NCBI GenBank assembly: GCA_029907255.1
Contig: JARYMF010000002.1
Span: forward strand, 1 to 64,000
Length of the DNA: 64,000 nt
Reading direction: 5' to 3'
Source of the DNA: Armatimonadota bacterium
GTDB lineage: Bacteria > Armatimonadota > UBA5829 > DTJY01
Below are positions 1 through 21,396 of the stretch, piece by piece. Under the pieces are notes generated by a model. The model had not been told where the DNA came from. It ran no database searches and saw only the letters and a program-made list of their open reading frames with translations. The translations under genes were made by a program, and so were the position numbers. How positions within the stretch are numbered: position 1 is the first letter of the stretch; each line of letters starts with the position of its first letter.

Positions 1-3000
1 CTGTGAAAGGAGCAACTATTGATTCCGCGCATGAGAAGAAAGTTCGGCATGGGCATATATCCACACTTCACACCTGGCCTGCGAGACTGCCGCTGGCTGC
101 TTGTCGAGCGGCGCTTATCGCCACCCTTCTCCCGGATCCACGCAGCAGCTATGGGCGACGTTTGCTGTGCATAAACATCGGCGGCGTAGCCGACAAAAAA
201 ACCAAACAAAAAAAACTCCCAAACGGCCGGGTCGAGAGCGTCGAAGTCGAGGAAACAGTCGGCGGCATTCTGCATTGGGGGCGCAAACCCAACCCTGAAC
301 TCCCTGACATCAGGGAGTTCAGCAAGAAGATACACAAGGCTTTCGGCAGGCGCATGCCGAAGGTTCTGGACCCGTTCGCAGGAGGCGGCGCTATTCCTCT
401 CGAGGCGATGAGGCTGGGATGCGAGGCGACTGCTATAGACATCAACCCAGTTGCGTGGTTCATTCTCAAATGCACGCTGGAGTACCCGGAGAAGCTTGCG
501 TATAAGAAGCTGCCGCTGCCGGACTTCGTGCTCAAAGACCGGGAGTTCATGGAGTCGTTCTTCAAAGCACAGGGTGCCAACCGAGAGCGCGTGAAGTCAC
601 AGCTTGCCGAGCTGGGGTTGGACGGCAGGAACAAAGTGCAGTCGGAACCGCTGGGGATAGAAAGATCTTCTTTAGATGCCAACCTGGCATGGCAGGTTCG
701 TGCTTGGGGGCAGTGGGTTCTGGAGCAGGCGCGGAAAGAGCTTGCGCGGTTCTACCCCACCTATGCTGAGTTCGAGCCGCTTAAGAAGGTCGGCAGTTGG
801 GAAAAGCGGCCGATGAAGCTTGTGCCGCTTGACGAAAACGGCAAGCCGGATATTGACTCGCTCAATGCGGAGTTCGACAAGCAGTATCTAAGAGATATTA
901 CAAAACCTCGCTGGATAGCCAAGCCGACGGTCGCCTATCTGTGGGCGAGAACAGTAACTTGCAAGAAATGCCGAGCGACAATTCCGCTGCTCAAGACTCG
1001 TTGGCTGTGCAAGAAGGGTGGGAAGCGGGTGCTCCTCACCATGGAGCCAAATGCAGACGGTACGGGAGTAGTGTTCGGGATACAGAACAACGTGCCGGTG
1101 GTCGGAAATAACGCCGCTCGGCGCCGCAGGCATGACAAGCGAATCGGACGAGGAACCATGAGACTCAACGGCGCGTGGTGTCCCTGCTGTGGCAATCCGA
1201 AAACCGTGGCGATGACGATGGAGGACATCCGCCTTGAGGGCCAGGCAGGGCGCATGGGTGCCGTGATGACGGCGGTCGTTGTGGACCCAATCAAGCCGAG
1301 GTTCAAGCGCAAGTCTGGCGACGAGAGCATTGTCGGCAAGGAATACCGCCTGCCCACGGAGGAAGAGATTCGCCTGGCAAATGAAGCGGCAAACGAAATC
1401 GAGCGCGTGTTCGCGGAAATACCCTTCGGAGTACCTGAGGAGCCTACGCCTACACCAGGTTTAGGCGCCTCGTCTGCGTTCTCTGCTCCCCTCTACGGCT
1501 TCGACAAATGGTATAAGCTTTTCACCCCGCGGCAGTTGGTTGCGCTGGGGGTGTTCGCCAAGTGGACCAGGAAGGTTCGCGAGCTCCTGCAAAGCAACGG
1601 GGCGGATGCTGTCTGGGGAGAGGCTGTTGTGTCCTATCTTGCGGCTGTGCTGGATAAAATTGCCGACTATAATTCCACGATTTGCGTATGGAATCCGACA
1701 AGAGAGCTTATTCGCCATACATTCGCGCGTTTTGCACTACCCATCACCTGGGATTTCGTCGAGCTAGCAGTAACTAACGATGTCAGCGGAGCTTATGTAT
1801 CTCAGCTGGATAGCATTACACCGTGTCTGGAACATCTTCTTCAGGCAGGGATAGGCGCTTCCCAACCGCTGATAAGGAATGGGTCTGCTGTAAAGCTCGA
1901 TTCAGAGCAATACGATGTGATAATAACCAGTCCGCCGTGCTATGATGAAATCCCCTCCATCAAGTTGATGGACTTCTTCTACGTTTGGTTGCGGCGGACG
2001 CTTTATGGTACAAGCCAGGATTTTGACTCGGTTTTCACCAGTGAGCTTTCGCCTAAGTGGGACCATGGAGCTAGTGATGGAGAGTTGGTTGACAACCCTA
2101 GCCACCTCGAAGGAGACGAGCAGAAGTTAAAGGCCGCTTATGAAAAGAGCATCGTAAACTCATTCAAGGCATGTTATCAAGCACTTAATCAGGATGGTCG
2201 ACTCGTTGTAATATTCGAAAATAAGCATCCGGATATTTGTAAAACGCTGATTTCGACAATCTCCAAAGTAGGATTTGTCTTCCAGAGAATGTGGCCAACT
2301 AATAATGATAGTGAGTCGGACGACCTCCTACAAGCCTTGATTTCGACGACTTCGTCTCCCTACTGCTGGGTGGTCTTCAAGAAAACGAACGAAACAACTC
2401 ACTCCAGTGGGGCCAACGTAAGTGAAATACAACTAACAAAAGAGCCTCGACCAAGTGTAGCAAAGGAGGCAAAACCAAGTGAGATAAGAGAACGACGAAG
2501 ACCTGAAGATAGAGGAGGCGGTCCGCGACTTTCTATCCAAAAGCACAAGGAAGCACCAGTTACGGAAGCCAAAAAACGTGAATCGAAGCCTGAAATAGTT
2601 TGTTGGAAGCTAGGGCGTCAATGGAAATTGGCGGTACAAGTGCCGGAGGAAATTGCTGGAAATTCCAACGTGAAAGTATTTCAAAAGGGAAAAGAGCTTG
2701 ATGAATTCGATGGAGAAAATTGGCTCCTTAAAGCAGTTTCGGGCAAAATTTTGGTCCAATGCAATAAAGATAAGAAATTTAAGATAGCCCTTGAAAAGGA
2801 CTATCTTTTGTTTAAGCTAAATAAAGAAAATCAAGGGCGACGCATTAAGTTACCTTCTTATGGCTCCTATTTAGCAGTGGTTCCAAAGGACTGGGAGCGT
2901 GATGAGACGCTCTCGGGGGAGCCTTATGTGGCGCCGGAGCCAACATCTCTGAATGATTATCAGGCTCATTTCTTCCACCTTGAAAAAGATGAAGACAGAA

Positions 3001-4361
3001 GAATTGCGTTCAGCAACCCGCGCATTGTGATTGAGCCATTAAACGTTGAACTTAGCGGCAACTGCTTGAAAGATGCAAACGCGGAAATGGGACCGCTCTT
3101 CGGCAGTGACCCCCCAAAAATCTGTGTTAAGCAGGACAGCACTTGGAAAACCATAAAAACAATCGTTATCGGTGAAGAAGGACGTGGATCAAACAAATGG
3201 CGGATGAGCTTCACTCCTACTTCATCCGGCCTGGAGCAATATCTACCTAATGAGGTTAAATATAGAAGCGCTGGCTGGTACTTTCTTAGATTTTATGATT
3301 TAAACGACGAACTTGTAGAAAGCATGGACTTTAGATTTATCTCGCCTCTAAAGGAGATAAAAATCCCCGAGCAGTCTCCTTTCCCGACCGAAGACGGCCA
3401 TGTGCAGCTATCTGTCGAATTTATCCATGACGAGGACCTTGTTCTTAATCCAGCCGATGAACAAACCAGCATCAAGGTTGAGGAAGCAAAAGGCCGAACA
3501 ATCCTTAAGATACCGCCAAATCTTGCCTGCGATGAGAGCCGCTGGTTTGTGGGTCGTGTAGATGGGCCTCAGGTGGAAGTAGTGGTCTTGGCGGAAAGGG
3601 TTTGGTGGGCGATAAGTGAAGAGGGCGAAGAACCTTCGGAATGGAAGGACCGATGTCTAGAACTTTCTCGCGACGACTTTGCCGCTACTTCCAAAAAGGC
3701 TCTGTGGCTGCGATTCCCCAGGTGCCGATGGGTGGACAAAATCCGTGTTGGATTCGAACAATCAAATGCTAGGCCATATAAGGTAAGGGTAAAAGAGAGG
3801 ACAGTTGCTATTCCGCTCCGTGATTTCTATGATGCTTTGCCCTTCGGAAATAGGGATTTTTCGCTTAAATTGTGGGTTAATATCGGAGGAGTAACTTACG
3901 AAGGGAACCCCTGTGAATGTAAGGCAAGATTTAGATGTAAGAAATGTGAATTTTCCGCTTTCACAGAAGAAGACATGCATGACCATATCCAAAAGAAGCA
4001 TCTAGATGAGTTCTTTATCCATGTGCCTTATGACGAGCTGCGTAGACGAGATCCCTCACTTCCTAAGGAGATATATAAGTGCAGTTATTGTGGTCATTAT
4101 GTTCCATCTAGCGATGCTGGGTCTCTCACGAGTGCCATTTATAAGCATATTGAGAGGGAATGTCAAAAAGCCGAAAGAGAAATGGGAATTGTAAAACCTA
4201 GGTTTCGTGTAATTACCGACTCTAATGAAATCAGAGAGAATGTAATTTCTAACTTGCCACGTCTCTATAGATGCAAATTGTGTGGAAACAACTCGAGGAA
4301 TTTTGACGAAGGAAATAGGTTAAACCACTTGATTAAAAATCATAAGAGCGAACTTTACTAG
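1..4361 (+). CDS. DUF1156-type DNA methyltransferase with C-terminal zinc fingers (5' end cut by window)
   Basis: Predicted DNA base methyltransferase. The first visible residues match the DUF1156 block (AHEKKVRHGHISTLHTWPAR), which in this family usually follows about 15-20 further residues, so the true start probably lies upstream and the GTG at 3 is likely an internal valine. Numbering from that codon, the AdoMet motif DPFAGGG is near residue 123 and the catalytic motif reads TSPPCY at 642-647, where relatives more often have DPPY or SPPY. Between them is a zinc-ribbon-like insert (CKKC near 320, CPCC near 394). A charged linker (about 795-870) leads to a region I do not recognise and to three Cys/His clusters near 1310, 1359 and 1423. 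DNA is GC-rich up to about 1900 and clearly AT-richer after about 2140, as if two sources were joined. The helicase gene follows 20 bp downstream. Family assignment is solid; target base and biological role are inferred. Confidence 0.85.
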   Translation, partial: VKGATIDSAHEKKVRHGHISTLHTWPARLPLAACRAALIATLLPDPRSSYGRRLLCINIGGVADKKTKQKKLPNGRVESVEVEETVGGILHWGRKPNPELPDIREFSKKIHKAFGRRMPKVLDPFAGGGAIPLEAMRLGCEATAIDINPVAWFILKCTLEYPEKLAYKKLPLPDFVLKDREFMESFFKAQGANRERVKSQLAELGLDGRNKVQSEPLGIERSSLDANLAWQVRAWGQWVLEQARKELARFYPTYAEFEPLKKVGSWEKRPMKLVPLDENGKPDIDSLNAEFDKQYLRDITKPRWIAKPTVAYLWARTVTCKKCRATIPLLKTRWLCKKGGKRVLLTMEPNADGTGVVFGIQNNVPVVGNNAARRRRHDKRIGRGTMRLNGAWCPCCGNPKTVAMTMEDIRLEGQAGRMGAVMTAVVVDPIKPRFKRKSGDESIVGKEYRLPTEEEIRLANEAANEIERVFAEIPFGVPEEPTPTPGLGASSAFSAPLYGFDKWYKLFTPRQLVALGVFAKWTRKVRELLQSNGADAVWGEAVVSYLAAVLDKIADYNSTICVWNPTRELIRHTFARFALPITWDFVELAVTNDVSGAYVSQLDSITPCLEHLLQAGIGASQPLIRNGSAVKLDSEQYDVIITSPPCYDEIPSIKLMDFFYVWLRRTLYGTSQDFDSVFTSELSPKWDHGASDGELVDNPSHLEGDEQKLKAAYEKSIVNSFKACYQALNQDGRLVVIFENKHPDICKTLISTISKVGFVFQRMWPTNNDSESDDLLQALISTTSSPYCWVVFKKTNETTHSSGANVSEIQLTKEPRPSVAKEAKPSEIRERRRPEDRGGGPRLSIQKHKEAPVTEAKKRESKPEIVCWKLGRQWKLAVQVPEEIAGNSNVKVFQKGKELDEFDGENWLLKAVSGKILVQCNKDKKFKIALEKDYLLFKLNKENQGRRIKLPSYGSYLAVVPKDWERDETLSGEPYVAPEPTSLNDYQAHFFHLEKDEDRRIAFSNPRIVIEPLNVELSGNCLKDANAEMGPLFGSDPPKICVKQDSTWKTIKTIVIGEEGRGSNKWRMSFTPTSSGLEQYLPNEVKYRSAGWYFLRFYDLNDELVESMDFRFISPLKEIKIPEQSPFPTEDGHVQLSVEFIHDEDLVLNPADEQTSIKVEEAKGRTILKIPPNLACDESRWFVGRVDGPQVEVVVLAERVWWAISEEGEEPSEWKDRCLELSRDDFAATSKKALWLRFPRCRWVDKIRVGFEQSNARPYKVRVKERTVAIPLRDFYDALPFGNRDFSLKLWVNIGGVTYEGNPCECKARFRCKKCEFSAFTEEDMHDHIQKKHLDEFFIHVPYDELRRRDPSLPKEIYKCSYCGHYVPSSDAGSLTSAIYKHIERECQKAEREMGIVKPRFRVITDSNEIRENVISNLPRLYRCKLCGNNSRNFDEGNRLNHLIKNHKSELY

Positions 4362-4381
4362 TTCTGGTGGGGTAAGCGTCT

Positions 4382-7300
4382 ATGAATCTGAAAAAGCTTT
4401 CGGAACAAGTGGAAGAAGGATATCGGCGGTACCTAAAAACCACTTTTTACTTCAAGGACCCAGACCTTCGTGCATCGTTTGAAGAAGCGTTGAACTCAGG
4501 ACATCTGAGTAAGGGACCGTTTATTGAGGCAACGCCAGTGTTCAGGCGTGGTCAAAAGCCGCGCAGCTTGTTCGAGGACATCCTTGGATTTGAGCCTGAC
4601 GAGGGATTTTTGAAAGCTGTGCACGATAACAGGTTGCTCTACCAACACCAAGAACAAGCAATCCGCAAAGTGGCTGATGGACGCAATGTGATTGTTGCCA
4701 CAGGAACAGGAAGTGGCAAGACCGAAGCTTTTATTTATCCAATATTGCTTCATCTCTACAAGGAGTTCAGAGCGGGCAAATTGTGCCCTGGAGTGCGTGC
4801 GTTAATCCTCTATCCAATGAACGCTCTGGCTAATGACCAACGTGAACGTCTCGGGGAAATCTGCAAACGGCTTAAAGAAGAGCGTTCACCCTTTCGCTTT
4901 ACTTTTGGGCAGTACATCGGAGAAACGCCGGAAGATGAAAATGACTCCCAACGTAAAGCGCAAGACCACCTTTCAGAGCGAAGCAGGAGCGGTTATTCAA
5001 TAATCGAAAACGGGCAGGTCGTGCATGGAGAGCTTGTTCTTCGGCAAGAGATGCGAACAGCACCTCCTCACATATTATTGACCAATTACTCAATGCTAGA
5101 ATATCTACTTCTCCGCCCTGCCGACAGTCCGCTCTTTGACAACGGGCAAGCTCGATGGTGGACGTTTCTTGTGCTTGACGAGGCACATCAGTACAGAGGT
5201 TCCACGGGAATCGAAATGGCGATGCTCCTGCGGCGTCTCAAGCAAAGGTTAAGGGAGGGTGGACGCAGCGAGCCATTCCGTTGCATAGCCACCAGCGCCA
5301 CGTTGGTTAGCAAGGATGATGGCAAAGATGCCGTAGCAAAGTTTGCCGCCAATCTGTTTGGCGAGGAGTTCCAAAAGGATGATGTGATTCTTGGCGAAAC
5401 TGAACCAATCCCCGAACCTGGAACGTACAAGCTTCAACCAAACGATTATCGGCTCCTCAAAGAGGCTCTGCAGGAGAAAAGCGCGGAAGGCGAGAGGCGC
5501 CTGCGTGAAATAGCGGCGAAAATTGGCATTATGCTTCCAGCTGACGAAGACCTTCAAAAGGCTGTCGGGAGACTTTTGCAGAGCGACAAACGCGCAGTGG
5601 ACCTGCGCCGCCGCATCACAGGAGAGCCCGCTGAGGTCCAAGAAGTCGCTAATCAAGTTTTTGAAGACCTGCCAGAAGAGGAGCGAGTTTCCTCTCTATT
5701 AAATTTGGTTGAACTTCTATTGCAGGCGAAGGACCCCTCCTCCGATGCACCTCTTTTATCTGCACGGTATCACCTATTTCTGAGGTCGCTTGAAGGCGCT
5801 TTTGTCTCGTATTGGCCCGAGAAAAAAGTCTTTCTCGACCGCAAGTCGGTTGGTAAAGAGAGTACGGCATTCGAAGTTGCCATCTGCCGAGAATGCGGTC
5901 AGCATTATTTTGTTGGACAGATCGTGCAGGGAATATTAGTAGAGGCGATACGCGATCCAAGTGATGATAGGTTTGGAGCCACCTACTTTCGGCCTCTTGA
6001 GAATGGCGAAGATTTAGCTGAGGAAGATAACAATGGCAAGGTCAAGAGCAGTCGGATATTTCACCTATGCGTGCGCTGCCGCAAAATTCAGCAATTCAAG
6101 CCGCAGTGTGGGCATGACACCATAATCCAGGTGGTAAGGGAAGAGTCTCCGAAGGATGAAGATAGGGCAGACCAACTGGTAAGATGCGGTGCCTGCGGAT
6201 ACACGGCTTCCGGTCGCGACCCCGTGCGTGAGGTTATACACGGCACAGATGGTCCCCACACCGTGATAGCTACGACTCTTTACAAAACCCTCCCAGAAGG
6301 GCGAAAAAAGGTGCTAGCCTTTGCCGACGGGCGCCAGGAAGCGGCTTTCTTCGCTTGGTACCTTGAGGACTCGTATAACGACGTTCTATATCGAAATATG
6401 ATACTCAAGGTGGTTCGGCCGCAGAATGTTCACTCTCAAGGTGCTTTGTCTTTGCGGGATTTGGCGAAGGGTCTAGAAAACCTTTTCCGCGAAAAACGGG
6501 TTCTTCCTGCTTCTATAAGCGACGACGAGCGACGCCGCGAAGCTTGGCGTAGAGTCTATCGCGAGTTCCTTACCGATGAGTCAAGAATTTCCCTCGAAGG
6601 CGTCGGGCTGATACGGTGGCAGATTAAGTGGCCAGACGGGTTTAGGGTCCCCGAAGTCCTCACAAACCCTCCCTGGTTGCTAACTGAACAAGAAGCACGG
6701 GACGTTGTATTCATATTGCTGGACACGATGAGAACGGATAGAGCCGTTGAGATGCGGACCGACTGCCGTATCCAACCGAGCTGGAACGACCTCGAGCTCC
6801 CCTCACAGCAGAAATTTCGCATTGGCGATCCCAAAGGGAAGAAGGACGTACGCAGTTGGGATGGCGAGAGGGGGAAACGTGCTCGATTCCTTGTGAAACT
6901 TCTGATGAGGCTGCAGAGCGGCGTTTCGAAGCAAGAAGCCCTTGAGAAAGCTGTGGAGGCTTTGCGCTCGATATGGGAGACACTGCGTCAGTGCGATGAA
7001 GATGCCTCTCCCAAAGACCGCCTACTGCTCCCTGTGGATGATGCTCGCAGGCTGAATCCTGACTGGTGGAGAATCTCTAGCATCGCAGATAACGACACAA
7101 TCTATCAATGCGACACTTGCGGCCGCCTTCAAGCGGTCTCTGTTCGCGGCGTCTGTCAGCGACACAGCTGTCCGGGCACTCTCAAGGCTGTGCATCTGGC
7201 AGATTTGGAACCGAACCACTATCGTCTCCTCTATGAGGAAGATTTGCCTGGGCTTTTGCGGGTGGAGGAACATACGGCACAGCTTGACAAGGAAAAGGCG

Positions 7301-9073
7301 CGGGAATTTCAGCAGGAATTCAAGCAAGGCAAAATCCATGTACTGAGTTGCTCGACGACCTTTGAATTGGGTGTGGACCTGGGGGACTTGGATATCATCT
7401 TCCTTCGCAACATTCCCCCGGAAGCCTTCAACTATGCTCAGCGCGTGGGCCGAGCTGGGCGGCGAAGTGGATATCCTGGCTTTGCCATTACCTTTTGCAG
7501 GCGTAATCCCCATGACATTTATCACTTTATAGAACCTCAGCAAATGCTGAGAGGCATGGTTCGGCCTCCTGTCCTGAGCATACGGAACGAAAAAATTATT
7601 ATCCGCCATATTGTAGCAACGACCTTGTCGTCCTTTTTACGAGCCTTTCCAGAGAGGTTTAATAACGTGCAGGCTCTATTCAAAGACTTGGAGCATCCGT
7701 CTGGCGTTGCCGATTTCAAAGCGTTTCTAAATGAGCACCAAACTGAACTGGAAGAATCTCTGCGCGCCATTGTTCCTCCCGATGTTATGGATCAAATTGG
7801 GCTCAATGATGGGAAGTGGATTGAAAATATTACTAATAAGGATGGCCGCTTTGCTTTAGCAGAAGCAGAGGTCTCAAGCGACTATCGGACTGTCAAGAAC
7901 CTTGAGGAGATGGCTGGGAGTAAGGGAGATTACGACGGTGCTAAATGGGCTAAGGCACGGGCGGATACAATTGCTGAGGAAGACGTGCTTTCGTTCCTCT
8001 CCCGCAAAGCTGTGATTCCGAAGTACGGCTTCCCGGTGGATGTAGTTGAACTGGATACCCAAAGGACGCAGCAAAGCCAAGAGGCATCTGAAGTCCTGCT
8101 CCAAAGAGACCTAAGTATCGCAATTTCTGAATTCGCCCCGACGAGCAAGTTGATTGCGAACAAGAAAGAGTGGACCTCTTATGGGCTCAAGAAGGTGGCT
8201 GAGAGGGAGTGGCCATTGAAGTTCTACAAGCGATGTCCCCGGCACAATGTTTTCCTTCAATGGGAAAAAGGACAACCAGAGCCTGAGACTCCATGCGGTG
8301 ATAATTTGGCGGTGTCAAAATATGTTATTCCGCTTTTTGGGTTCGTAACTAATCGTGATAAGCCAAATGAGCCAAAATCACGGACTGCGAGACTATTTAC
8401 GACGCACCCTTATTTTGCAGGTTCGCTCGGCTCCGAACCTGACATCATTGATATACCGCCGAATAATCCGATGATTAAGATGAAGAAAGCATCTCCTGGT
8501 TTGATGGTTGTGTTGTGCGAAGGCATACGTGGAGATGGATTCTATATCTGCCAAGAATGCGGTGCAGGATTTAGAAAGTGCGAAAAGACTCATAAAACTC
8601 CCTATGGTCAGAATTGTGATGGAATGCTTGAACAGGTTTCTCTCGGGCACGAGTTTATAACCGACGTGGTTCAGCTTCAGTTTTGTTCGGAAGCCCCTAA
8701 CGACATCGGACCTGTTTGGTTCGCCTACTCGCTGGCATACGCATTGGTTGAGGGAGCCGCAGAAGTCTTAGAAGTGCCGCCAAACGACCTTAATGCAACT
8801 GTTGCCTCAAATAGCCAATTAACTATTCCTCCGATTGTTATTTATGACGACGTCCCTGGGGGAGCAGGCCTTGTGGCTCGGCTCGAAGATAAGGATATAC
8901 TCAAGGAGTGCTTGCAGTTAGCGAGGGAAAGAGTCAGCGGTAGGTGTGGGTGTGATGAAGGGACAAGTTGTTATGGGTGTCTGAGAAGTTTTAGGAACCA
9001 ATTTGCCCATCAATTTCTTCAGCGAGGGCCAGTAAAGCATTATATCGAGAATCTTCTCAGCAAGTGGCAGTAA
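4382..9073 (+). CDS. Large DEAD/DEAH-box helicase with DUF1998-type C-terminal domain
   Basis: Superfamily 2 ATP-dependent helicase of 1563 residues. Visible motifs are Walker A ATGTGSGKTEAF (about 105-116), DEAH in LVLDEAHQYRGS (about 262-273), TSATL (about 304), and motif VI QRVGRAGRRSGYPG (about 1020). Three Cys clusters lie between (CRECGQHY near 503, CVRC near 563, CGACGY near 602). The C-terminus has VIYDDVPGGAGLV (about 1487) and a four-Cys cluster CGCDEGTSCYGC (about 1522), typical of the DUF1998/MZB domain found in MrfA/YprA-type repair helicases and in DISARM and Druantia defence proteins. It starts 20 bp after the methyltransferase stop, so the two are probably co-transcribed. The length is closer to defence helicases (DruE-like) than to the ~750-residue MrfA. 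Helicase identity is clear; a role in defence is inferred from size and partner. Confidence 0.9.
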   Translation: MNLKKLSEQVEEGYRRYLKTTFYFKDPDLRASFEEALNSGHLSKGPFIEATPVFRRGQKPRSLFEDILGFEPDEGFLKAVHDNRLLYQHQEQAIRKVADGRNVIVATGTGSGKTEAFIYPILLHLYKEFRAGKLCPGVRALILYPMNALANDQRERLGEICKRLKEERSPFRFTFGQYIGETPEDENDSQRKAQDHLSERSRSGYSIIENGQVVHGELVLRQEMRTAPPHILLTNYSMLEYLLLRPADSPLFDNGQARWWTFLVLDEAHQYRGSTGIEMAMLLRRLKQRLREGGRSEPFRCIATSATLVSKDDGKDAVAKFAANLFGEEFQKDDVILGETEPIPEPGTYKLQPNDYRLLKEALQEKSAEGERRLREIAAKIGIMLPADEDLQKAVGRLLQSDKRAVDLRRRITGEPAEVQEVANQVFEDLPEEERVSSLLNLVELLLQAKDPSSDAPLLSARYHLFLRSLEGAFVSYWPEKKVFLDRKSVGKESTAFEVAICRECGQHYFVGQIVQGILVEAIRDPSDDRFGATYFRPLENGEDLAEEDNNGKVKSSRIFHLCVRCRKIQQFKPQCGHDTIIQVVREESPKDEDRADQLVRCGACGYTASGRDPVREVIHGTDGPHTVIATTLYKTLPEGRKKVLAFADGRQEAAFFAWYLEDSYNDVLYRNMILKVVRPQNVHSQGALSLRDLAKGLENLFREKRVLPASISDDERRREAWRRVYREFLTDESRISLEGVGLIRWQIKWPDGFRVPEVLTNPPWLLTEQEARDVVFILLDTMRTDRAVEMRTDCRIQPSWNDLELPSQQKFRIGDPKGKKDVRSWDGERGKRARFLVKLLMRLQSGVSKQEALEKAVEALRSIWETLRQCDEDASPKDRLLLPVDDARRLNPDWWRISSIADNDTIYQCDTCGRLQAVSVRGVCQRHSCPGTLKAVHLADLEPNHYRLLYEEDLPGLLRVEEHTAQLDKEKAREFQQEFKQGKIHVLSCSTTFELGVDLGDLDIIFLRNIPPEAFNYAQRVGRAGRRSGYPGFAITFCRRNPHDIYHFIEPQQMLRGMVRPPVLSIRNEKIIIRHIVATTLSSFLRAFPERFNNVQALFKDLEHPSGVADFKAFLNEHQTELEESLRAIVPPDVMDQIGLNDGKWIENITNKDGRFALAEAEVSSDYRTVKNLEEMAGSKGDYDGAKWAKARADTIAEEDVLSFLSRKAVIPKYGFPVDVVELDTQRTQQSQEASEVLLQRDLSIAISEFAPTSKLIANKKEWTSYGLKKVAEREWPLKFYKRCPRHNVFLQWEKGQPEPETPCGDNLAVSKYVIPLFGFVTNRDKPNEPKSRTARLFTTHPYFAGSLGSEPDIIDIPPNNPMIKMKKASPGLMVVLCEGIRGDGFYICQECGAGFRKCEKTHKTPYGQNCDGMLEQVSLGHEFITDVVQLQFCSEAPNDIGPVWFAYSLAYALVEGAAEVLEVPPNDLNATVASNSQLTIPPIVIYDDVPGGAGLVARLEDKDILKECLQLARERVSGRCGCDEGTSCYGCLRSFRNQFAHQFLQRGPVKHYIENLLSKWQ

Positions 9074-9132
9074 ACCGCACCCCATCGCACGGAATTACTT
9101 CTGTAAGGTTAGTTATATGAAGGAGATTAGAT

Positions 9133-9636
9133 ATGAGAATCATGCTATTATGTAGGGAAGCACCTGAACTATCAGCTCGATCTTTGGCAGAGTTCATTTT
9201 TGACCTGACAATGCTTTGGGACCGTTTAGTGATTTCTTTTGAGGAACCTTATAATCCAATTCTGTATTCGCCATATTTCTACACGCGTCAACGGCGGCTA
9301 GAGTCGCAATTGGAGCTGAAAATCGGAAAGTTATCCAAAGAATCCCCACTGCAGATTGAGCTTATCATTGGAACAGCTGCCGCTGCCATAAGGGCGGCAA
9401 AAATCTTCGCCGAGATTCTTCGTCTCCTAATCAAATTGCCCTTAGAGGTAGAGAGTCAACGGCTTAAAAATGCTGAGTTAAGGTTAAGATTGCTCGAGAG
9501 GGTTAATGAACTTTCGAGACGGGTTCACCCTGAGCACCGTGAGGTCATCCAAAAACTTTTAGAACAGGATAAAGATTTGCGGCGATTGCTAAAAAACGAG
9601 ATTCGGATTATTAACGTAGAAGAGAAGCCAGACTAA
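9133..9636 (+). CDS. Hypothetical helical protein downstream of the methyltransferase-helicase pair
   Basis: Protein of 167 residues that I do not recognise. An AAGGAG site lies 7 nt before the ATG. The N-terminal 65 residues look mixed alpha/beta; residues about 72-103 form a hydrophobic Ala/Ile/Leu-rich helix (IELIIGTAAAAIRAAK and following) and the rest is a charged helical, possibly coiled-coil, tail ending in acidic residues. The hydrophobic stretch could be a membrane-associated or packing helix. It follows the helicase by 59 bp in the same direction and shares its lower-GC style, so it may be a third member of the same unit. It has no catalytic motif that I can see. Confidence 0.7.
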   Translation: MRIMLLCREAPELSARSLAEFIFDLTMLWDRLVISFEEPYNPILYSPYFYTRQRRLESQLELKIGKLSKESPLQIELIIGTAAAAIRAAKIFAEILRLLIKLPLEVESQRLKNAELRLRLLERVNELSRRVHPEHREVIQKLLEQDKDLRRLLKNEIRIINVEEKPD

Positions 9637-9843: not shown

Positions 9844-10185
9844 TCATGGGGAAAAGCTTGTCCTGCTGGCCCTGATTGCCAAACTGTGTGCCGTTCCTGC
9901 GGCTATAGCCACAAAGTCTTTGTTTGGCTTAGGAACATCGCACTGACCATCATCGTTATTTCCCCAAGCGACGACAGAACCATCTTTTCGAAGTGCTAAA
10001 CTGTGGTCCCCTCCTCCGTCTATCTGCACAAACGGACCGTTTAGGTCAACTCCTACAACCTGAATACCCCGGCCGACAATCGAACCTGCCTTCGAACCAG
10101 TAAACTGCGGCACAACGGTAAACCACAACACAACAGCAGTAATACCTACTATCACAGCAAACAGTACAAGAAGCCTTGTTCTCAT
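9844..10185 (-). pseudogene. Collapsed duplicate of the RCC1-repeat protein
   Basis: An intact 113-residue ORF, but its first about 90 residues match the N-terminus of the neighbouring 551-residue RCC1 protein (signal anchor, then VPQFTGSKAGSIVG and the first repeat) and its last about 35 match that protein's C-terminus (AAGTAHSLAIR, then RTS). The eleven repeats between are missing. Flanks on both sides are also duplicated. The simplest reading is duplication of the whole gene followed by recombination between near-identical repeats. With one and a half repeats it cannot form a propeller, so it is probably non-functional although it could still be translated. Confidence 0.7.
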
Positions 10186-10478
10186 TGCAATTTCACCTCG
10201 TTTGGCATTATTGAACCACTGTGGCGTTCAGAGGTTCTTCGCTTGCCAGCTGGCATTGCGAAAATTATACGTCAAGATTTACATTTGTCAAGGGATTTCT
10301 CCTTTAATTGTGGAGTATTAAGTAACCATGTAGATTCGAAAGAGGGAGCATCCTTTCAGGTAAGTATTGGTGTGACATAGCATAGACACGTCACTGCAGT
10401 GTCTACAGCATAAGCGCTGATGCCCATTGGCTTGCAAAACCGTAAGGTATTGAGAAATGACTCATGTATAAAGGTGCT

Positions 10479-12134
10479 TCATGGTGAAGAGCTTGTTCTG
10501 CTGATCCTGATTGCCAAACTGTGTGCCGTTCCTGCGGCTATAGCCACAAAGTCTTTGTTTGGCTTGGGTACATTGCACTGACCATACCTGTTATCTCCCC
10601 AAGCGACGACAGAGCCATCTTTCCTAAGTGCCAAACTGTGTAACCTTCCTGCGGCTACAGCCACAAAGTTCTTGTTTGGCTTGGGTACATTGCACTGACC
10701 ATACTGTACATTATCGTACTGAAGATCCTCTTTGGCCCCCCAAGCAACGACAGAGCCATCTTTCCTAAGTGCCAAACTGTGGTACGCTCCTGCTGCTACA
10801 GCCACAAAGTCTTTGTTTGGCTTGGGTACATCGCAGTCACCATCACCGATAAACCCCCAGGCAACGATAGAGCCATCTTTCCTAAGTGCCAAACTGTGAA
10901 ATCCTCCTGCTGCTACGGCCACAAAGTCTTTGTTCGGTTTGGGTACATCACACTGACCATACTCGTTATCCCCCCAGGCTACGACAGAGCCATCTTTCCT
11001 AAGTGCCAAACTGTGGTCCCATCCTGCAGCTACAGCCACAAAGTCTTTATTTGGCTTGGGTACATCGCACTGACCATACGCGCCACTCCCCCAAGCGACG
11101 ACAGAACCATCTTTCCGGAGTGCCAAACTGTGGTAGCCTCCTGCGGCTACAGCCACAAAGTTCTTGTTTGGGCTGGGTACGTTACACTGACCACACCAGT
11201 TGTTCCCCCAAGCTACGACAGAGCCATCTTTACGAAGTGCCAAACTGTGGTCCCATCCTGCTGCTACAACCACAAAGTCTTTGTTTGACTTGGGCACATC
11301 GCACTCGCCATACGCGTTACACCCCCAAGCAACGACAGAGCCATCTTTTCGAAGTGTTAAACTGTAGTAGTCTCCTGCGGCTACAGCCACAAAGTCTTTG
11401 TTGGGCTTTGGCACATTACACTGACCATAGTTGTTCGAACCCCAGGCTACGACAGAGCCATCTTTTCGAAGTGCCAGACTGTGGTACTCTCCTGCCGCTA
11501 TGGCCACAAAGTCTTTATTTGGCTTGGGTACGTTGCACTGACCATACCAGTTGTTCCCCCAAGCAACGATAGAGCCATCTTTCCTAAGTGCCAAACTGTG
11601 GTGCCATCCTGCTGCTACAGCCACAAAGTCTTTGTTTGGCTTGGGTACATTACACTGACCATACTCGTTATTTCCCCAGGCTACGACAGAACCATCTTTT
11701 CGAAGTGCCAGACTGTGGTACTCTCCTGCCGCTATGGCCACAAAGTCTTTATTTGGCTTGGGTACCCGGCACAGACCATACTTCTTCTTCCAGCCCCAAG
11801 CTGCGACAGAGCCATCTTTTCGAAGTGCCAGACTGTGGTAGTATCCTGCTGCTACAGCCACAAAGTCTTTGTTTGGCCTGGGCACATCGCACTGACCAAC
11901 ATAGTTACTTCCCCAAGCAACGATAGAACCATCTTTTCGAAGTGCTAAACTGTGGTCCCCTCCTCCGTCTATCTGCACAAACGGACCGTTTAGGTCAACT
12001 CCTACAACCTGACCACCCCAGCCGACAATCGAACCTGCCTTCGAACCAGTAAACTGCGGCACAACGGTAAACCACAACACAACAGCAGTAATACCTACTA
12101 TCACAGCAAACAGCACAAGAAGCCTTTTTCTCAT
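10479..12134 (-). CDS. RCC1-repeat beta-propeller protein, membrane-anchored or secreted
   Basis: Protein of 551 residues. Residues about 4-25 form a hydrophobic signal anchor (LLVLFAVIVGITAVVLWF), so the rest should lie outside the cytoplasmic membrane. The remainder is a chain of twelve full RCC1-type repeats of 38-39 residues plus a partial thirteenth, each with the pattern YGQC(N/D)VPKPNKDFVAVAAG followed by HSLALRKDGSVVAWG. One repeat carries a longer insert (AKEDLQYDNVQ). RCC1 repeats fold as seven-bladed propellers, so twelve repeats would make more than one. The repeats are nearly identical at DNA level, indicating recent expansion or homogenisation. The start is supported by GAGGTG 7-8 nt upstream. 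The partner or ligand is unknown. Confidence 0.85.
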   Translation of the reverse strand: MRKRLLVLFAVIVGITAVVLWFTVVPQFTGSKAGSIVGWGGQVVGVDLNGPFVQIDGGGDHSLALRKDGSIVAWGSNYVGQCDVPRPNKDFVAVAAGYYHSLALRKDGSVAAWGWKKKYGLCRVPKPNKDFVAIAAGEYHSLALRKDGSVVAWGNNEYGQCNVPKPNKDFVAVAAGWHHSLALRKDGSIVAWGNNWYGQCNVPKPNKDFVAIAAGEYHSLALRKDGSVVAWGSNNYGQCNVPKPNKDFVAVAAGDYYSLTLRKDGSVVAWGCNAYGECDVPKSNKDFVVVAAGWDHSLALRKDGSVVAWGNNWCGQCNVPSPNKNFVAVAAGGYHSLALRKDGSVVAWGSGAYGQCDVPKPNKDFVAVAAGWDHSLALRKDGSVVAWGDNEYGQCDVPKPNKDFVAVAAGGFHSLALRKDGSIVAWGFIGDGDCDVPKPNKDFVAVAAGAYHSLALRKDGSVVAWGAKEDLQYDNVQYGQCNVPKPNKNFVAVAAGRLHSLALRKDGSVVAWGDNRYGQCNVPKPNKDFVAIAAGTAHSLAIRISRTSSSP

Positions 12135-14356: not shown

Positions 14357-14385
14357 ACACTAGCAAACAGAGCCAAAATTGTCAA
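14357..14385 (-). promoter_or_regulatory. Sigma-70-type promoter for the small membrane protein
   Basis: Reading on the minus strand: TTGACA (14385-14380), a 17-bp spacer and TAGTGT (14362-14357). The predicted transcription start lies about 25 bp before the GGAGGA-ATG of the membrane-protein gene. Confidence 0.6.
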
Positions 14386-14576
14386 GCGGTTTATTGTTTG
14401 AGTATGTTGTTTCTCGGCTATTGCAGGGTGTCTAAAGTGGCGGTGGTGCACTTCATCAGCGTTATCTGCCGAGGAAAGTTCGCTTGCGAGCGGTAAGAGC
14501 GGCCAAAGCTGAAAAATGACAGCAAGCCACCCGATGAATTAAAATAGAAATACTTATTCAACCTATGGAGGGAAAA

Positions 14577-17500
14577 GTGTCTCTACGTAAGTTTGGTCTC
14601 CTTTGCATTGCCATCACTTTGACAGTTTCCGTCGTTTCCCCCAGCGCATGTTTAGCCGAGAGGGTAAGGCGCATGCCTGCACCATCCAGCGGCTCCGAGA
14701 GCACCGATGTTATTCGAGAGGAGCGGATTAGAGCGAGGATGGAGGCGGCTGTCCCGTGGCTGGGAATCGCATTCAAAGAGACTGCCGCTGATTCTAGGGC
14801 GGGTGGTCTGGAAGTTGAGTCAGTAGCCGCTGGTTCTCCGGCAGAACAGGCGGGCGTCCGAAGCGGCGACATCATCAGTCAAATAGGTGGCAAGACGGTA
14901 ACGAATGCAAAAGATTTTATGCAGTTGGTTCTTGGGCTTAAGATTGGGACGGATTACCCGCTAACGGTTATTCGGGATGGCAAAACGCTTGAGCTGACAA
15001 TTCGCCCTGCGAGCCGTCCTGCGGGGCGGTTTGGTTCGGCTTCGACAGCGAACACCGAGGATGTTTCCGATAAGCCGGCGCCGAGGAAGGGACTGCTCGA
15101 TATAAATGTCTTAAAGTATGCATTCATTGACCCCAAGACGCGCGCTGTAACCTTCGTTGGCAAGTATGACCCCACCTATAATACCGGCCCGATACCATAT
15201 GCCGACTATCTCAAGGTGGCGCTGGAAAACCCGTATCCGTCGTTTTCTCTCGACCCGCCCCAGGAAACTGCCGAGGCGCTGAAGACAGCCGCGAAGGTTC
15301 TGGATGCGGAGATAGCAAGGATGGACGATTTGGAATACGCCAGCCAGTGGGCTCAGAAGGTCTCTAATCTGCTTTTAGAAGATCCTTCGCTTGAGGTAGA
15401 TAGAGCAAGATTCTTCAAACACTGTGCCGAGGTGCTGGGGATAACGGGCGACGAACTCAGGCGCATGCACGATGCCGCAACTGGTAAGATAGACATTCCC
15501 GGTACGGAGTTCATGGGCTTGGCGTCGAAGATGATACGCGGCATCGGACTCCCCAAGGCAGGCGACGCTTTGGGTGTGCTTGCCGCCGGCGGTACTCCTG
15601 AGGAACTGCTGTTCAAAATGGCAGAGAAACTTGGGCTTTCTGACCAATACACCGCTCTTGTCATGAAAGGCTTGCCGCCGGAGGAGTTTCGGAAGGAGGA
15701 GATTATTCTCTGCATATCCGAAATATGCCGCCAGTTTGAAGCGCCGGAAAGCGAAATCAACAGCATTGTGGCATCCATTCGCGGTGGGCAGTCAGCCGAC
15801 TTGATAATCAACTACATGGGCAAACAGCTCAGCAATTACATCACCAAGAAATCCGGCAGAAAAATGATAAACGGGTTGATTCTCGGACCGGCGGTTTTGG
15901 CGAGGCTCTACAATCTGCCAATCCCCAAGGCTGAGCTTGTTTTTAAGGGTCTGCCTGCGGATTCACTGCTCGGCGATGTGTTCTTTAAATCGGACTACAG
16001 GTTGAAGAGTTTGAGCACATACCCCGACGCCCGAGATAGGGTCGCCGCCCATCTGACGCATCAGGAGTTCATGCAGAGACATCTGCCGGCGGCTGTGCTG
16101 AAGGCACTGAGCGGTGTGGACGTCCTTGCAGGTCAGCGGCTGGTTCCTGCCGAGGTTGCTATGCATGTGTCGCCAGCTGGCGATGTTGTTGAGTTCGGCG
16201 ATTCCAAAATAAAGATTATCGGCTGGATAATTGAGATGATGCGCCCAGCCGACAAAGCAACTATTGATACTCTCAGCGACTGCATATCAAAATACTCAAA
16301 CTTCCTTGCTGAGCACTACGACGACTATGCGAGGGTCTATCCGGAGTGGCACAAGCTTTCGGAAGCGGCGAAAGTAATTGCGCTCGCAAGGTGGGCGAAA
16401 AACAATGGCTATACATTGAGGGTGATTGGCGAATCCGGTGAAAAGGTCAGCCTGCCGAAATACATCAATGGCTTTTGGAGTGCAGTTTTCGAAGTCTACG
16501 AAGACAGCCAATACCTCAACTTCATCGCTGAGGGAGGCGCTAGTTTTGCGAAGGACGAGGGAGAAGACTGGCTTAAAGTTCAGCAAGACGTATCCGTTAC
16601 ATCCAGTGTATCCAAGCAGTTGGTTGCCAGCGCAATATTTGCCGAGCAGGCTTTGGGTGCGGCTGTTTCCGGCGACCTCGAATCTGCCAGGGAGCTAGCC
16701 GAGAAGAGTGCTCGCGCAATGACCGGCGAGATTGACCTAACGAGACTGCCGCCGCTCGACAACATCCCCGTTCCTGCTGACCCCGCATCTTATGCGGCGG
16801 CGACGAGGGAAGCCATTGATGAAGCCGCGGAATGCTTTGATAAAATGATTGCGGCTGGAAAGGATATAGAAAAAGCCGAACAGCTTGCCGCAACTGCTCC
16901 AGACGAAGCCGCGAAGCTTAAAGAGCAGGCAGTCAAAGTTCGCGATGAAGCTCAAGCGAAGCTAAACCAAATCCTCGAACAGGTTAAGAACTACAAGTCC
17001 GACCCCACGCAGTCGGGAGAGGCGCTGATTGTATTGCAGAGTGATTCGGCGGTTGTTATGCCGATTGCGAGCGGCGGGTCTGCGGCATCATCCGGCACGA
17101 GTGCCCCAGGCACCACTAGCACCCCAGGCACAGGGGCACAGCCGACTGCAGCTGCTTCCACCAAGCCGACGCCTGAGGATCTCGAAAGGCTGAAGAAAGA
17201 ACTTGATGAGGTAAACAAGCAGATTGCCGCCACCAGGGAAGCCTTGCTTAGGTTGAATAAGTATATCCAGTCAAACCAGAAGCTGTTTGAGGAATGGGAG
17301 AGTTCCGCGTCGGAGGGTTTCGACAGGTGTGTTAGCATGATAGGAGACATAGCTTTGGATTTTGGCATAGGCGGGCTCTCCGAGCGGTATGAGACTATCT
17401 ATGAACTTGCCAAGAAGCTCCCAGGAAAACCAGAGGATGTAATCGAAAAATATAGATACCTTGCTTCGCTAACTCGAAGGCTGAGAGAGGCAAAGGAGGT

Positions 17501-18742: not shown

Positions 18743-21396
18743 TGAACAGCGCAAAGTTCGCCAACATACCCCAGGAGCTCAAGGCACGGCGGCAGTGGGT
18801 GTGCTACCGAATCGAGTTCAGGGACGGCAGGAAAACGAAGATTCCCTACCGTACGGACAAGGCTGGGGGCGGCAGGGCTCGATCAAATGATTCTACAACC
18901 TGGCATTCGTTCGAGGAGGTGGTTTCAGCCCTCGCCAAGCCGAAGAACCGATTCGACGGCATCGGGTTTATTCTCTCGGAGAGCGACCCATACACGTTTA
19001 TTGACCTTGACCACGTGGTGAGCGGCGGCGCAGTCGAGGAATGGGCACAGGAGATTGTGGATAAAGTCAAGTCGTATACCGAGTTCAGCCAGTCGGGAGC
19101 AGGCATCCACATTTTCGCTCGTGCCAGGAAGCCTGGGCCGAGGTGCAGAACGCACAAACACCCGAAGTTTGAGATATACGACAGACTGCGGCTGGTTGTC
19201 TTTACTGGCAAGCTTTTGCCTGGGTCGCCACCGCAGATACGCGGCGCACAGAAGGTGGTTGATGAAATCTACTTTCGGATGTTCGCCGACGAGCCGCGCA
19301 GTGAGCCGAAGAAGGCAGGGCGGGAGTTTCATCCGATTCTCGCTTCGGACCGTGAGCTGGTTGATATGGCGTTGGCGGCGTCGAACGGAGGCAGGTTCCG
19401 CAGGCTTTGGAGCGGCGACACCAGCGAATACGGCGGCGACGACAGCGCGGCGGATATGGCGCTCTGCTGCAGTCTGGCGTTCTGGACCAGGAAGGATCCT
19501 GAGCGGATGGACAGGCTGTTTCGGATGTCGGGGCTGATGCGCCCGAAGTGGGATGAAAAGCGGGGAGATTGGACCTATGGCCGCAGGACCATTGATGCCG
19601 CGATAGAGCGCACCACCGAGGTGTACGACGGCAGGGGTGGCGTGCAGGCGAGGCGTGGGGCTGCGGATGAGCAGTTGACGGCGGCTCGTGCAAGAATCGC
19701 CCAGGCGCGGAACGCAGGATCGGCATCTGCGGTGTTCGAGGCAGTCGAGTCGCTCGCGCTTCTTCCGCCAGGCGAGTATGCGGATGCCGTCAAGAAGCTG
19801 AAGGAGGCTGTTCCCCAGCTCGACCTTCGCGAGTTGAAAAAAGCAGTCGCCAGGGCGCGGAAGTCGAAGTTCGCTAATGAGGGTAGCGAATATCCCCAGC
19901 TGGTAGTGAGCAACCGACAGCTGAGGGACATGGGCGACGAGGCAGTCGGCATACTGGAGCGGTCGAATGCGCCGCCGACGCTGTTCGTGCGGTCGGGCGC
20001 GCTGTGTGAGGTGGTGGAGGATGAGCGCGGGCGTCCGATAATCAGGGCGGTTACGGAGGATGTCGTGCTGGCGCGGCTAGCCAAAACGTGCAACTCCGTT
20101 GTTCAAACGGAGGATGGGCTGAAAAACGTACTGCCGCCGAGGAGCATTGCGTCGTACATCTTGGCTCAAGGACGGTGGCCATTCCCTCCGCTTGAGGCGG
20201 TAACTTGCTCGCCAACCATCAGGCAGGACGGGAGCATTGCGCAGGTGCCAGGGTATGATTCCGCGACCAGGCTCTACTACCATCGGACGTCCGATGAGCC
20301 AGTTAACGTTCCTGACAAGCCGACTAGCGAGGACGTCGTCAAGGCGCTGGGTCTGCTGGATGAACTTTTGCACGATTTCCCGTTCGACTGCCAGGCAAGC
20401 AAGGCAAATGCGATTGCTCTGCTATTGTCGCCCATAATTCAGCCGGCTGTCATGGACCTGACGCCGCTGTTCCTGATAGACGCACCGACGGCGGGCAGTG
20501 GGAAGAGCCTTCTTGCAATCACTGCGGGCATAATAAGCAGCGGCGCGGTGCCCGACTTCACGACCGCGCCATCGAAGGACGAAGAGTGGCCGAAGAAGAT
20601 TACTGCTATCCTAACTGCTGGGCCTTCGCTTGTGGTAATTGACAACGTGAAGCACACCATCCAGAGCGCTGAGCTGGCAATGCTTCTCACCACAAGGGCT
20701 TGGAAGGAGCGCGTCTTCGGAAAGAATACCGAGACCGTCATACTGCCGAATCGCGCAGTGTGGGTGGCAACGGGCAACAACATCCAGATTGGCGGCGACA
20801 TTCCGAGGCGGTGCGTGTGGATTCGCATTGACCCTCGGCAGTCGAAGCCTCACCAGCGGGAGGGATTCCTTCACCCGAACTTGATTGACTGGACGCTGGA
20901 GAACAGGGCGAGTCTGCTTGCCGCGCTCCTAGTCTTGTGTCGGGCGTGGTATGCTGATGGAAGCCCCGAGTATCCCGTTCCGGTGTTCGGCTCGTTCGAG
21001 AAGTGGACGCATACCGTCGGAGGCATTCTGGGGCATGCGGGTGTGGAAGGATTCCTGGCGAACCGAGACCAGCTGTGGGAGCAGTCGGATGCGGAGTCGG
21101 CGGAGTGGGAGGCATTCCTGTCGAAGTGGCACAAGGTGTACGGCAGTAAGCCTATTACGCCGAAGGAGCTTGTTCGCGCCGTCGAGACTGGGGAAGAGAT
21201 AGCCGATGCACTGCCTGCGGTGGTGTCGGATGCTCTTTGCGGCAAAGGCGACAGGTGCTCGCGCATAGGCAAGCAGTTTCGGGCGAGGCTGGGGAAGCGC
21301 TACGGCAAGGGCGGCTTTCGGCTGGAGCGAGGGGCAAGGAATACGGGCGGCGTTACCTGGGTTGTTGAGGCGGACGATGCCCAGTCAACAATGTAG
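18742..21396 (+). CDS. Primase/polymerase-helicase type replication protein
   Basis: Start taken at ATG 18742 (GGAGG upstream; homologous-looking sequence ELKARRQWVCYRIE begins here; an in-frame ATG at 18622 overlaps the terminator). This gives 884 residues. The N-terminal domain has the archaeo-eukaryotic-primase-like signature GIGFILS then FIDLDHVV with acidic pair D88/D90, and SGAGIHIFAR further on. The C-terminal domain has a P-loop APTAGSGKSLLA (about 581-592), a Walker-B-like LVVIDN (about 630) and WVATGNNIQIGGDIPRRCVW, as in viral/plasmid helicases of the D5/SF3 or related AAA+ type. Such fusions replicate plasmids, phages and satellites. GC-rich codon use differs from the helicase and RCC1 genes. 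It runs directly into an iteron-like repeat block. The exact family name is uncertain. Confidence 0.8.
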   Translation: MNSAKFANIPQELKARRQWVCYRIEFRDGRKTKIPYRTDKAGGGRARSNDSTTWHSFEEVVSALAKPKNRFDGIGFILSESDPYTFIDLDHVVSGGAVEEWAQEIVDKVKSYTEFSQSGAGIHIFARARKPGPRCRTHKHPKFEIYDRLRLVVFTGKLLPGSPPQIRGAQKVVDEIYFRMFADEPRSEPKKAGREFHPILASDRELVDMALAASNGGRFRRLWSGDTSEYGGDDSAADMALCCSLAFWTRKDPERMDRLFRMSGLMRPKWDEKRGDWTYGRRTIDAAIERTTEVYDGRGGVQARRGAADEQLTAARARIAQARNAGSASAVFEAVESLALLPPGEYADAVKKLKEAVPQLDLRELKKAVARARKSKFANEGSEYPQLVVSNRQLRDMGDEAVGILERSNAPPTLFVRSGALCEVVEDERGRPIIRAVTEDVVLARLAKTCNSVVQTEDGLKNVLPPRSIASYILAQGRWPFPPLEAVTCSPTIRQDGSIAQVPGYDSATRLYYHRTSDEPVNVPDKPTSEDVVKALGLLDELLHDFPFDCQASKANAIALLLSPIIQPAVMDLTPLFLIDAPTAGSGKSLLAITAGIISSGAVPDFTTAPSKDEEWPKKITAILTAGPSLVVIDNVKHTIQSAELAMLLTTRAWKERVFGKNTETVILPNRAVWVATGNNIQIGGDIPRRCVWIRIDPRQSKPHQREGFLHPNLIDWTLENRASLLAALLVLCRAWYADGSPEYPVPVFGSFEKWTHTVGGILGHAGVEGFLANRDQLWEQSDAESAEWEAFLSKWHKVYGSKPITPKELVRAVETGEEIADALPAVVSDALCGKGDRCSRIGKQFRARLGKRYGKGGFRLERGARNTGGVTWVVEADDAQSTM

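What the first reader, a model, noticed from the sequence alone, without database searches (positions are those of the whole stretch)
1..9636. Candidate two- or three-gene anti-phage system: DUF1156 methyltransferase plus DUF1998 helicase plus small helical protein
Seen: a DUF1156-type methyltransferase followed 20 bp later by a 1563-residue helicase with DUF1998 domain and a 167-residue unknown protein, all on one strand beside mobile-element remains. Established: DISARM and Druantia use DUF1998-containing helicases with methyltransferases. Inference: this is a related but distinct module, because no DrmA/DrmB split, no PLD nuclease (DrmC) and no other Druantia partner is visible downstream to 9.6 kb. 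The window starts inside the first gene, so upstream partners (for example a DUF499 ATPase) could be missing.
Basis: partly seen in the sequence, partly recalled or inferred. Interest (0 to 1): 0.7.

Follow-up and report, generated by a model that had tools for sequence, protein, structure and literature searches.

The report
Dead-methylase fusion to Druantia-like helicase module
The locus carries a rare two-gene, probably anti-phage module (a Druantia-like DNA helicase plus a new zinc-finger partner protein) that recurs in distant bacteria; here the partner's usual membrane anchor has been replaced by a methyltransferase domain whose catalytic residues have decayed while its DNA-reading part has not.

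Summary
The genes exist as described, but the unit was misread. The 1452-residue "DUF1156 methyltransferase" is a fusion: residues 1-797 are a local Hma-type methylase; residues 831-1452 are another protein ("ADP"), Ig-like domains plus three C2H2-type zinc fingers, matching no library family. ADP lies directly 5' of a DruE-like helicase in 11 genomes found here (Chloroflexota, Planctomycetota, this one), some in defence islands. These helicases form one fully supported clade, apart from Druantia I, Druantia III and MrfA, and lack a nuclease domain. Elsewhere ADP often starts with a transmembrane helix; once it is fused to a Rad50-like ATPase; here to the methylase.

The methylase half has degenerated selectively: catalytic DPPY became SPPC; 31 of 89 invariant positions changed at its two ends, against 2 of 118 in the middle. 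SAM motif I and the target-recognition region are conserved. Upstream, on another contig, lie a UvrD helicase and a 50-residue HmaA stump (a broken Hma operon). The 167-residue protein is an orphan.

Best reading: a new Druantia-related two-gene system whose partner here uses a pseudo-methylase as DNA-reading module. Function and mechanism are inferred, not shown.

The parts
1..2393 (+). DUF1156 (Hma/BREX-related) methyltransferase domain, residues 1-797 of the fusion ORF; its first 12 residues lie on contig C12
   Evidence: PF06634 E 1.8e-13; PADLOC HmaB 1.2e-73; relatives 64-49% identical over residues 2-802 only; alignment
369..389 (+). SAM-binding motif I (DPFAGGG), intact
   Evidence: alignment with 8 canonical relatives
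906..1682 (+). target-recognition-like insert, residues 302-560, conserved, not accelerated
   Evidence: about 0 of 47 invariant positions changed in residues 301-560; branch 0.17 vs 0.26 in sister G020
1923..2393 (+). catalytic end of the methylase, degenerate: motif IV DPPY to SPPC at 1929-1940
   Evidence: invariant TDPPYY in 8 relatives, TSPPCY here; 31 of 89 invariant positions changed in the two ends vs 2 of 118 in the middle, P 3e-11; branch 0.90 vs 0.09
2394..2492 (+). linker at the fusion junction, without an in-frame start codon
2493..4361 (+). ADP: new partner domain (tandem Ig-like beta-sandwiches plus 3 C2H2-type zinc fingers)
   Evidence: A1/A2 alignments; AlphaFold2 pLDDT 85.9; Foldseek hits to Ig/FnIII chains; 5' of the helicase in 11 genomes
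3936..4001 (+). zinc finger 1 (C-x2-C-x12-H-x4-H)
   Evidence: conserved columns C482/H498/H503 in A2
4080..4163 (+). zinc finger 2 (C-x2-C...H...C)
   Evidence: conserved columns C530/C533/H552
4272..4343 (+). zinc finger 3 (C-x2-C...H-x4-H)
   Evidence: conserved columns C594/H612/H617
4382..9073 (+). DruE-like YprA-family SF2 helicase ending right after its DUF1998/MZB zinc module (no nuclease domain)
   Evidence: PADLOC DruE1 2e-182; Pfam DEAD, Helicase_C, MZB; clade; Walker A 4703-4723, DEAH 5177-5188, MZB 8732-8983
9133..9636 (+). 167-aa helical orphan protein, probably accessory or unrelated
   Evidence: no family; no relative in 60 other genomes

Best explanation
The conserved unit is a two-gene module: ADP (Ig-like domains plus C2H2 zinc fingers) followed by a DruE-like ATP-dependent DNA helicase with a DUF1998 zinc module and no nuclease. 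It is a lineage of its own within the Druantia-related branch of YprA-family defence helicases, with a partner not described in the papers and libraries consulted. Proposed mechanism (inferred): ADP is the sensor/loader. Its N-terminus places it (usually at the inner membrane, through one transmembrane helix and a disordered linker), its Ig-like domains bind a partner or phage ligand, its zinc fingers bind DNA or the helicase, and it recruits the helicase to incoming or replicating phage DNA, where unwinding or translocation stops the phage. In this genome the module was acquired horizontally and fused in frame to the hmaB methylase gene of a decaying Hma operon. The methylase half has lost catalytic residues but keeps its SAM motif and target-recognition part under constraint, so it most likely serves as a non-catalytic DNA-reading module in place of the membrane anchor. 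Shown: fusion, recurrence of ADP plus helicase, clade, selective degeneration. Inferred: anti-phage function, DNA reading, helicase loading.
For: Fusion: MTase relatives match residues 1 to about 820 only and the rest matches separate proteins. Recurrence: ADP directly before the helicase in this window and in L007, L008, L009, L079-L083, L085 and L107; matches in 7 of 400 and 2 of 392 genomes of two other phyla (query genomes included) and in 1 of 291 of the own phylum. Clade: helicases of ADP loci monophyletic, support 1.0, apart from DruA-linked, DruH-linked, DrmM-like-linked and MrfA-like ones; the ADP tree also puts the window with L008. Defence context: Gabija GajA/GajB just upstream in L079, PADLOC candidates PDC-M30A/M41B just downstream in L008, E1-E2 and mad3-like genes in L081. 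Anchors: N-terminal hydrophobic helix (mean KD 1.9-2.8) followed by Arg/Lys in 5 loci, hydrophobic hairpin-like stretch in the Rad50-like fusion L007. Selective degeneration. Helicase motifs intact.
Against: No experiment; no read data to confirm the fusion junction or the C12-C2 join; the fusion is seen in one genome. No nuclease in the pair, so how it would stop a phage is open. Only 3 of 11 loci show clear defence neighbours among the genes scanned. ADP has no detectable homology to DruH or Druantia I partners. The methylase model is of low confidence, so structure does not support a folded pseudo-enzyme. Three stand-alone ADPs (L009, L085, L107) lack a clear transmembrane helix and L008's is weak.
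Confidence: 0.55

Rival explanations
1. The methylase half is only a dying remnant of the hmaB gene into which the ADP-helicase module inserted; it supplies translation start and promoter but no function, and the locus may be inactive.
For: HmaA cut to its last 50 residues, HmaC not found, a 5.3-kb insertion and a 140-bp duplication at the gene start; catalytic motif lost; fusion in one genome only.
Against: Decay is not uniform: 2 of 118 invariant positions changed in residues 36-640 against 31 of 89 at the ends (P 3e-11); residues 301-560 are not accelerated; the whole 1452-codon frame is open; ADP and helicase keep conserved motifs.
Confidence: 0.22
2. It works like a restriction-modification type system (DISARM/ARMADA/BREX-like): the methylase marks host DNA and the helicase attacks unmarked DNA.
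For: Methylase-helicase adjacency; DISARM and ARMADA combine YprA-family helicases with methylases (PMC12458937); DUF1156 methylases are N6-adenine methylases of Hma/BR systems (PMC12839542).
Against: Motif IV SPPC instead of invariant DPPY and loss of neighbouring invariants; the C-terminal HTH triad that PMC12839542 ascribes to all BR methylases is replaced; ADP-helicase pairs elsewhere carry no methylase.
Confidence: 0.1
3. MrfA/YprA-type DNA repair helicase with unrelated neighbours.
For: Shares the YprA-family core and DUF1998 module.
Against: Scores DruE1 608 bits against 124 for the best general DECH-box helicase model; far from MrfA-like sequences in the tree; constant unusual partner.
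Confidence: 0.05
4. Assembly or binning artefact: the fusion ORF joins two genes that are apart in the organism.
For: Window begins at a contig end in a duplicated stretch; draft assembly of 33 contigs; GC falls along the gene.
Against: The junction lies 2.4 kb inside a 345-kb contig; the methylase part next to the junction differs from all relatives in its catalytic residues and no separate normal copy of it exists in the genome; the frame is open across the junction.
Confidence: 0.06

Closest known systems
Druantia type III (DruH + DruE)
   Same: Two-gene layout, partner 5' of a large DruE-family helicase; partner rich in Ig-like domains (DruH has three according to PMC13192584)
   Different: Partner has no detectable homology to DruH models or to a DruH protein; helicase lacks the C-terminal PLD nuclease and falls in another clade
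Druantia type III-B of Bell et al. (PMC12458937)
   Same: DruE-like helicases of that branch most often have no nuclease domain
   Different: Its reference sequence (GIH50614.1) and partner genes were not available here; membership of this helicase clade in III-B is not excluded
Druantia type I (DruA-E) and the related cyanobacterial group
   Same: DruE-family helicase; helicase best scored by the PADLOC DruE1 model
   Different: No DruA seen; separate helicase clade; partner similarity not significant (hhalign E 0.03-0.3)
Hma / DUF499-centred BREX-related systems (HmaA-HmaB-HmaC)
   Same: N-terminal half is an HmaB-type DUF1156 methylase; HmaA stump and UvrD upstream
   Different: No HmaC, HmaA reduced to 50 residues, methylase C-terminus replaced by ADP, catalytic motif lost
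ARMADA / DISARM
   Same: Helicase of the same YprA family next to a methylase domain
   Different: No BrxHII/DrmD-like helicase, no PglX/DrmM-type methylase, no DrmA/DrmB split, no Vsr or PLD nuclease found next to it

Membership tests
Druantia III | DruE-family YprA helicase | tested here: met
   PADLOC DruE3 541 bits, DruE1 608 bits
Druantia III | DruH partner gene | tested here: not met
   no DruH model match for ADP at E 0.05; hhalign ADP profile vs DruH E 0.18; positive control L095 DruH scores 1356 bits
Druantia III | C-terminal PLD nuclease on the helicase (type III-A) | tested here: not met
   protein ends about 30 residues after the MZB domain
Druantia III | helicase groups with DruH-linked helicases | tested here: not met
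   separate clade with support 1.0
Druantia I | DruA (DUF4338) gene | tested here: not met
   no DruA match among the Pfam/PADLOC-scanned genes beside the pair; not every flanking ORF was scanned
Druantia III-B (Bell et al.) | helicase belongs to the III-B branch | not testable with these tools
   reference sequence not held; supplements not readable
Hma / BR system | DUF1156 N6-methylase with catalytic DPPY | tested here: not met
   HmaB profile 1.2e-73 but motif IV is SPPC
Hma / BR system | HmaA helicase | tested here: not met
   only its last 50 residues remain
Hma / BR system | HmaC DUF499 ATPase | tested here: not met
   tblastn of HmaC finds nothing in the window or the 20-kb end of C12
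DISARM | DrmA and DrmB as separate genes | tested here: not met
   helicase core and MZB in one ORF
DISARM | DrmA-type helicase | tested here: not met
   DrmA 67 bits vs DruE1 608
ARMADA | BrxHII-like helicase plus PglX-like methylase | tested here: not met
   methylase is DUF1156/HmaB type; no SNF2 helicase beyond the HmaA stump
ARMADA | helicase in the ARMADA clade | tested here: inconclusive
   separate from helicases next to DrmM-like methylases, but no named ARMADA reference was available
TALON | NERD nuclease, TPR-CSD, TBP genes | tested here: inconclusive
   none seen among the neighbours scanned, but not every neighbour was scanned
MrfA/YprA repair helicase | groups with MrfA | tested here: not met
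   PDB YprA 6znp 78 bits vs 238 bits for 9tu7, a 2108-aa DEAD/DEAH box helicase

The most novel reading that the evidence does not exclude
ADP plus DruE-like helicase is an undescribed defence type in which a membrane-tethered Ig/zinc-finger adaptor loads a helicase on incoming DNA, and in which the adaptor's N-terminal address can be exchanged (membrane anchor, Rad50-like ATPase, pseudo-methyltransferase); in this genome a methylase with decayed catalysis but conserved target recognition is used as a DNA sensor.
Probability: 0.3. Interest if true: 0.78.

Novelty: new variant of a known kind. Interest (0 to 1): 0.58.

Why it matters
DruE-type helicases are widespread in phage defence, and their partners are what is thought to decide where and when they act. 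A clade with a different partner, often membrane-anchored and with exchangeable N-terminal modules, gives a natural domain-swap series for asking what the partner contributes. A methylase that has lost catalytic residues while its recognition part stays constrained would be a test case for DNA reading by pseudo-methyltransferases in immunity.

Tried and rejected
DruH homology of ADP: PADLOC scan and hhalign not significant. Homology of ADP to Druantia I/cyanobacterial partners: E 0.03-0.3, similar to reversed-sequence controls (E down to 0.11), not claimed. Viral contigs: no relatives of either protein. Plasmids: no ADP; helicases at most about 30% identical. P0003 relatives: none. Recent gene conversion or mosaic origin of the methylase as the cause of the uneven conservation: synonymous sites are strongly diverged throughout (dS 0.6-2.0 or saturated against G020) and the degenerate part still groups with the same sister G020 at support 0.90. 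Separate translation of ADP from an internal start near the junction: no in-frame ATG/GTG/TTG at about 2382-2520. Structure of the methylase half: mean pLDDT 61.9, not used. A lookup of E. coli Druantia III references through the genome search was not possible; a plasmid-borne DruH/DruE pair (L095) served instead.

Full report
What is there. The three ORFs are at the stated places. The window is the first 64 kb of contig C2 of a 3.2-Mb, 33-contig genome. The last 32 bases of contig C12 overlap the window's start, and a longer stretch (140 bp in all, shared between C12's end and the window's start) duplicates the 3' end of a UvrD gene and the 5' end of the methylase gene. On C12 the order is: last 50 residues of an HmaA helicase (70-75% identical to relatives), a complete 654-aa UvrD-like helicase whose end overlaps the methylase start, then a 5.3-kb insertion with a beta-helix repeat protein gene, then the second copy of the duplicated stretch, which runs into the window. 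A same-class genome (G027) has HmaA, a 217-aa gene, UvrD (71% identical) and a DUF1156 methylase (74%) in this order. Upstream therefore lies a broken Hma operon.

The first ORF is a fusion. Canonical DUF1156 relatives, in this phylum and on plasmids, match only residues 1 to about 820. Residues 831-1452 are 45% identical to the C-terminal part of an 843-aa protein that sits immediately before the helicase in a Chloroflexota genome, 36% to the C-terminus of a 1428-aa ORF before the helicase in a Planctomycetota genome, and 23% over 438 residues to the gene before the helicase in a Thermoguttaceae genome. I call this domain ADP.

The conserved unit. Profile searches with ADP gave matches in 7 of 400 genomes of the phylum of L008, 2 of 392 of the phylum of L007 (both counts include the query genome), and 1 of 291 in the own phylum (this genome). 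In 11 loci with a substantial ADP (the window, L007, L008, L009, L079, L080, L081, L082, L083, L085, L107), the next gene on the same strand is a helicase of this family, 41-66% identical to the window's. L107 has two ADPs in a row; L081's ADP is split over two frames; one further match (L084) is a fragment with no helicase seen on the 18 kb held. In the helicase tree these proteins form one clade with support 1.0, apart from DruA-linked, DruH-linked, cyanobacterial and DrmM-like-linked helicases and from MrfA-like ones; the window's helicase is sister to that of L008. The ADP tree also pairs the window with L008. The pair seems to travel together and was probably acquired horizontally here, while the methylase half is local. 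Neighbours include a Gabija pair (L079), PADLOC candidate genes PDC-M30A/M41B (L008) and E1-E2 and mad3-like genes (L081); at the other loci no defence gene was recognised among the genes scanned.

Anatomy of ADP. The AlphaFold2 model (mean pLDDT 85.9) is a string of beta-sandwich domains ending in beta-beta-alpha units that carry three conserved Cys/His sets; Foldseek finds chains of Ig and FnIII domains, and the sequence profile weakly finds C2H2 fingers in the PDB (E 0.06 and above). Five N-termini carry a hydrophobic segment (L079, L080, L081, L082, L083; mean KD 1.9-2.8), followed by Arg/Lys and a long low-complexity linker, as in an anchored protein with its body in the cytoplasm. L007 instead carries a coiled-coil ATPase-like part (best NCBIfam match Rad50, E 2e-4) that includes a hydrophobic hairpin-like stretch, and the window carries the methylase.

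The helicase. Intact Walker A, DEAH and MZB cysteines; it ends right after MZB, so there is no nuclease domain. PADLOC: DruE1 608, DruE3 541, DrmA 67, DpdJ 86 bits; PDB: 2108-aa and 1970-aa helicases (9tu7, 9wae) rank well above YprA.

The methylase half is degenerate in one particular way. Against seven canonical relatives, 207 columns are invariant; the window departs at 2 of 118 in residues 36-640 but at 31 of 89 in residues 1-35 and 641-797 (Fisher P 3e-11), while the relatives taken one at a time do not show this pattern. Motif IV, TDPPYY in all eight relatives including a second hmaB gene of the same genome, is TSPPCY; motif I is intact. In region trees the window's branch is 0.17 (sister G020 0.26) for residues 301-560 but 0.90 (G020 0.09) for residues 641-797, still as sister of G020. 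Synonymous sites are strongly diverged throughout, so a recent conversion of the middle does not explain it. According to PMC12839542 such methylases carry a target-recognition insert in the core and end in a triad of HTH-like domains; that the conserved middle here is the insert is my inference, and the C-terminal part is here replaced by ADP. I read this as a pseudo-methylase kept for DNA recognition; altered catalysis is not excluded without assay.

Comparison. PMC12458937 describes ARMADA, BRIGADE, TALON and Druantia III-A/III-B around YprA-family helicases; its text does not mention DUF1156, DruH or a transmembrane partner. PMC13192584 gives DruH three Ig-like domains and a proposed sensor role, which is the best functional parallel for ADP, but no sequence homology was found. 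A full-text search of the held library for Druantia with DruE, zinc finger and transmembrane returned nothing; this is a limited search. Whether the clade falls inside Druantia III-B could not be tested.

Verdict. New variant of a known kind: a Druantia-related two-gene system with a new partner, seen here in an unusual fused form. Function and mechanism are inferred.

Noticed in passing
L005:14482-20000 and window 1-95: 5.3-kb insertion between UvrD and the methylase carrying a 1601-aa beta-helix repeat protein ORF (with a 100-N run inside), flanked by a 140-bp direct duplication of the UvrD end/methylase start.
   Followed up: partly
window 14361-14446 and L005:12126-12262, 14610-14770, 19647-19860: Dispersed ~150-bp repeat, 5 places in the genome, at the borders of the broken Hma operon and the insertion.
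   Followed up: partly
window 9844-12134 (- strand): RCC1-repeat gene (117-bp tandem units) with a truncated 93%-identical copy of its first part next to it; a perfect sigma-70 consensus (TTGACA-16-TATAAT) lies at 10291-10264.
   Followed up: partly
L107:1-8965: Two ADP genes in tandem before one helicase.
   Followed up: no
L007:2-4288: ADP fused to a Rad50/SMC-like coiled-coil ATPase with a hydrophobic hairpin-like stretch; in L009 a metallophosphatase gene (5814-6818) lies 1.1 kb before ADP, a possible SbcCD-like link.
   Followed up: partly
L065:142-9268 (G000 contig C4): Second Hma-like operon in the same genome: HmaA 1102 aa, HmaB 917 aa, and an 875-aa neighbour matching HmaC by tblastn, with normal TDPPYY.
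   Followed up: partly
L057:3323-6249: UvrD gene between HmaA and HmaB in an Hma operon: a variant of Hma not mentioned in PMC12839542 (no 'UvrD' in its text).
   Followed up: partly
L094:8959-20887: Pseudanabaena plasmid with two Druantia/YprA-type helicases tail to tail, from different clades.
   Followed up: no
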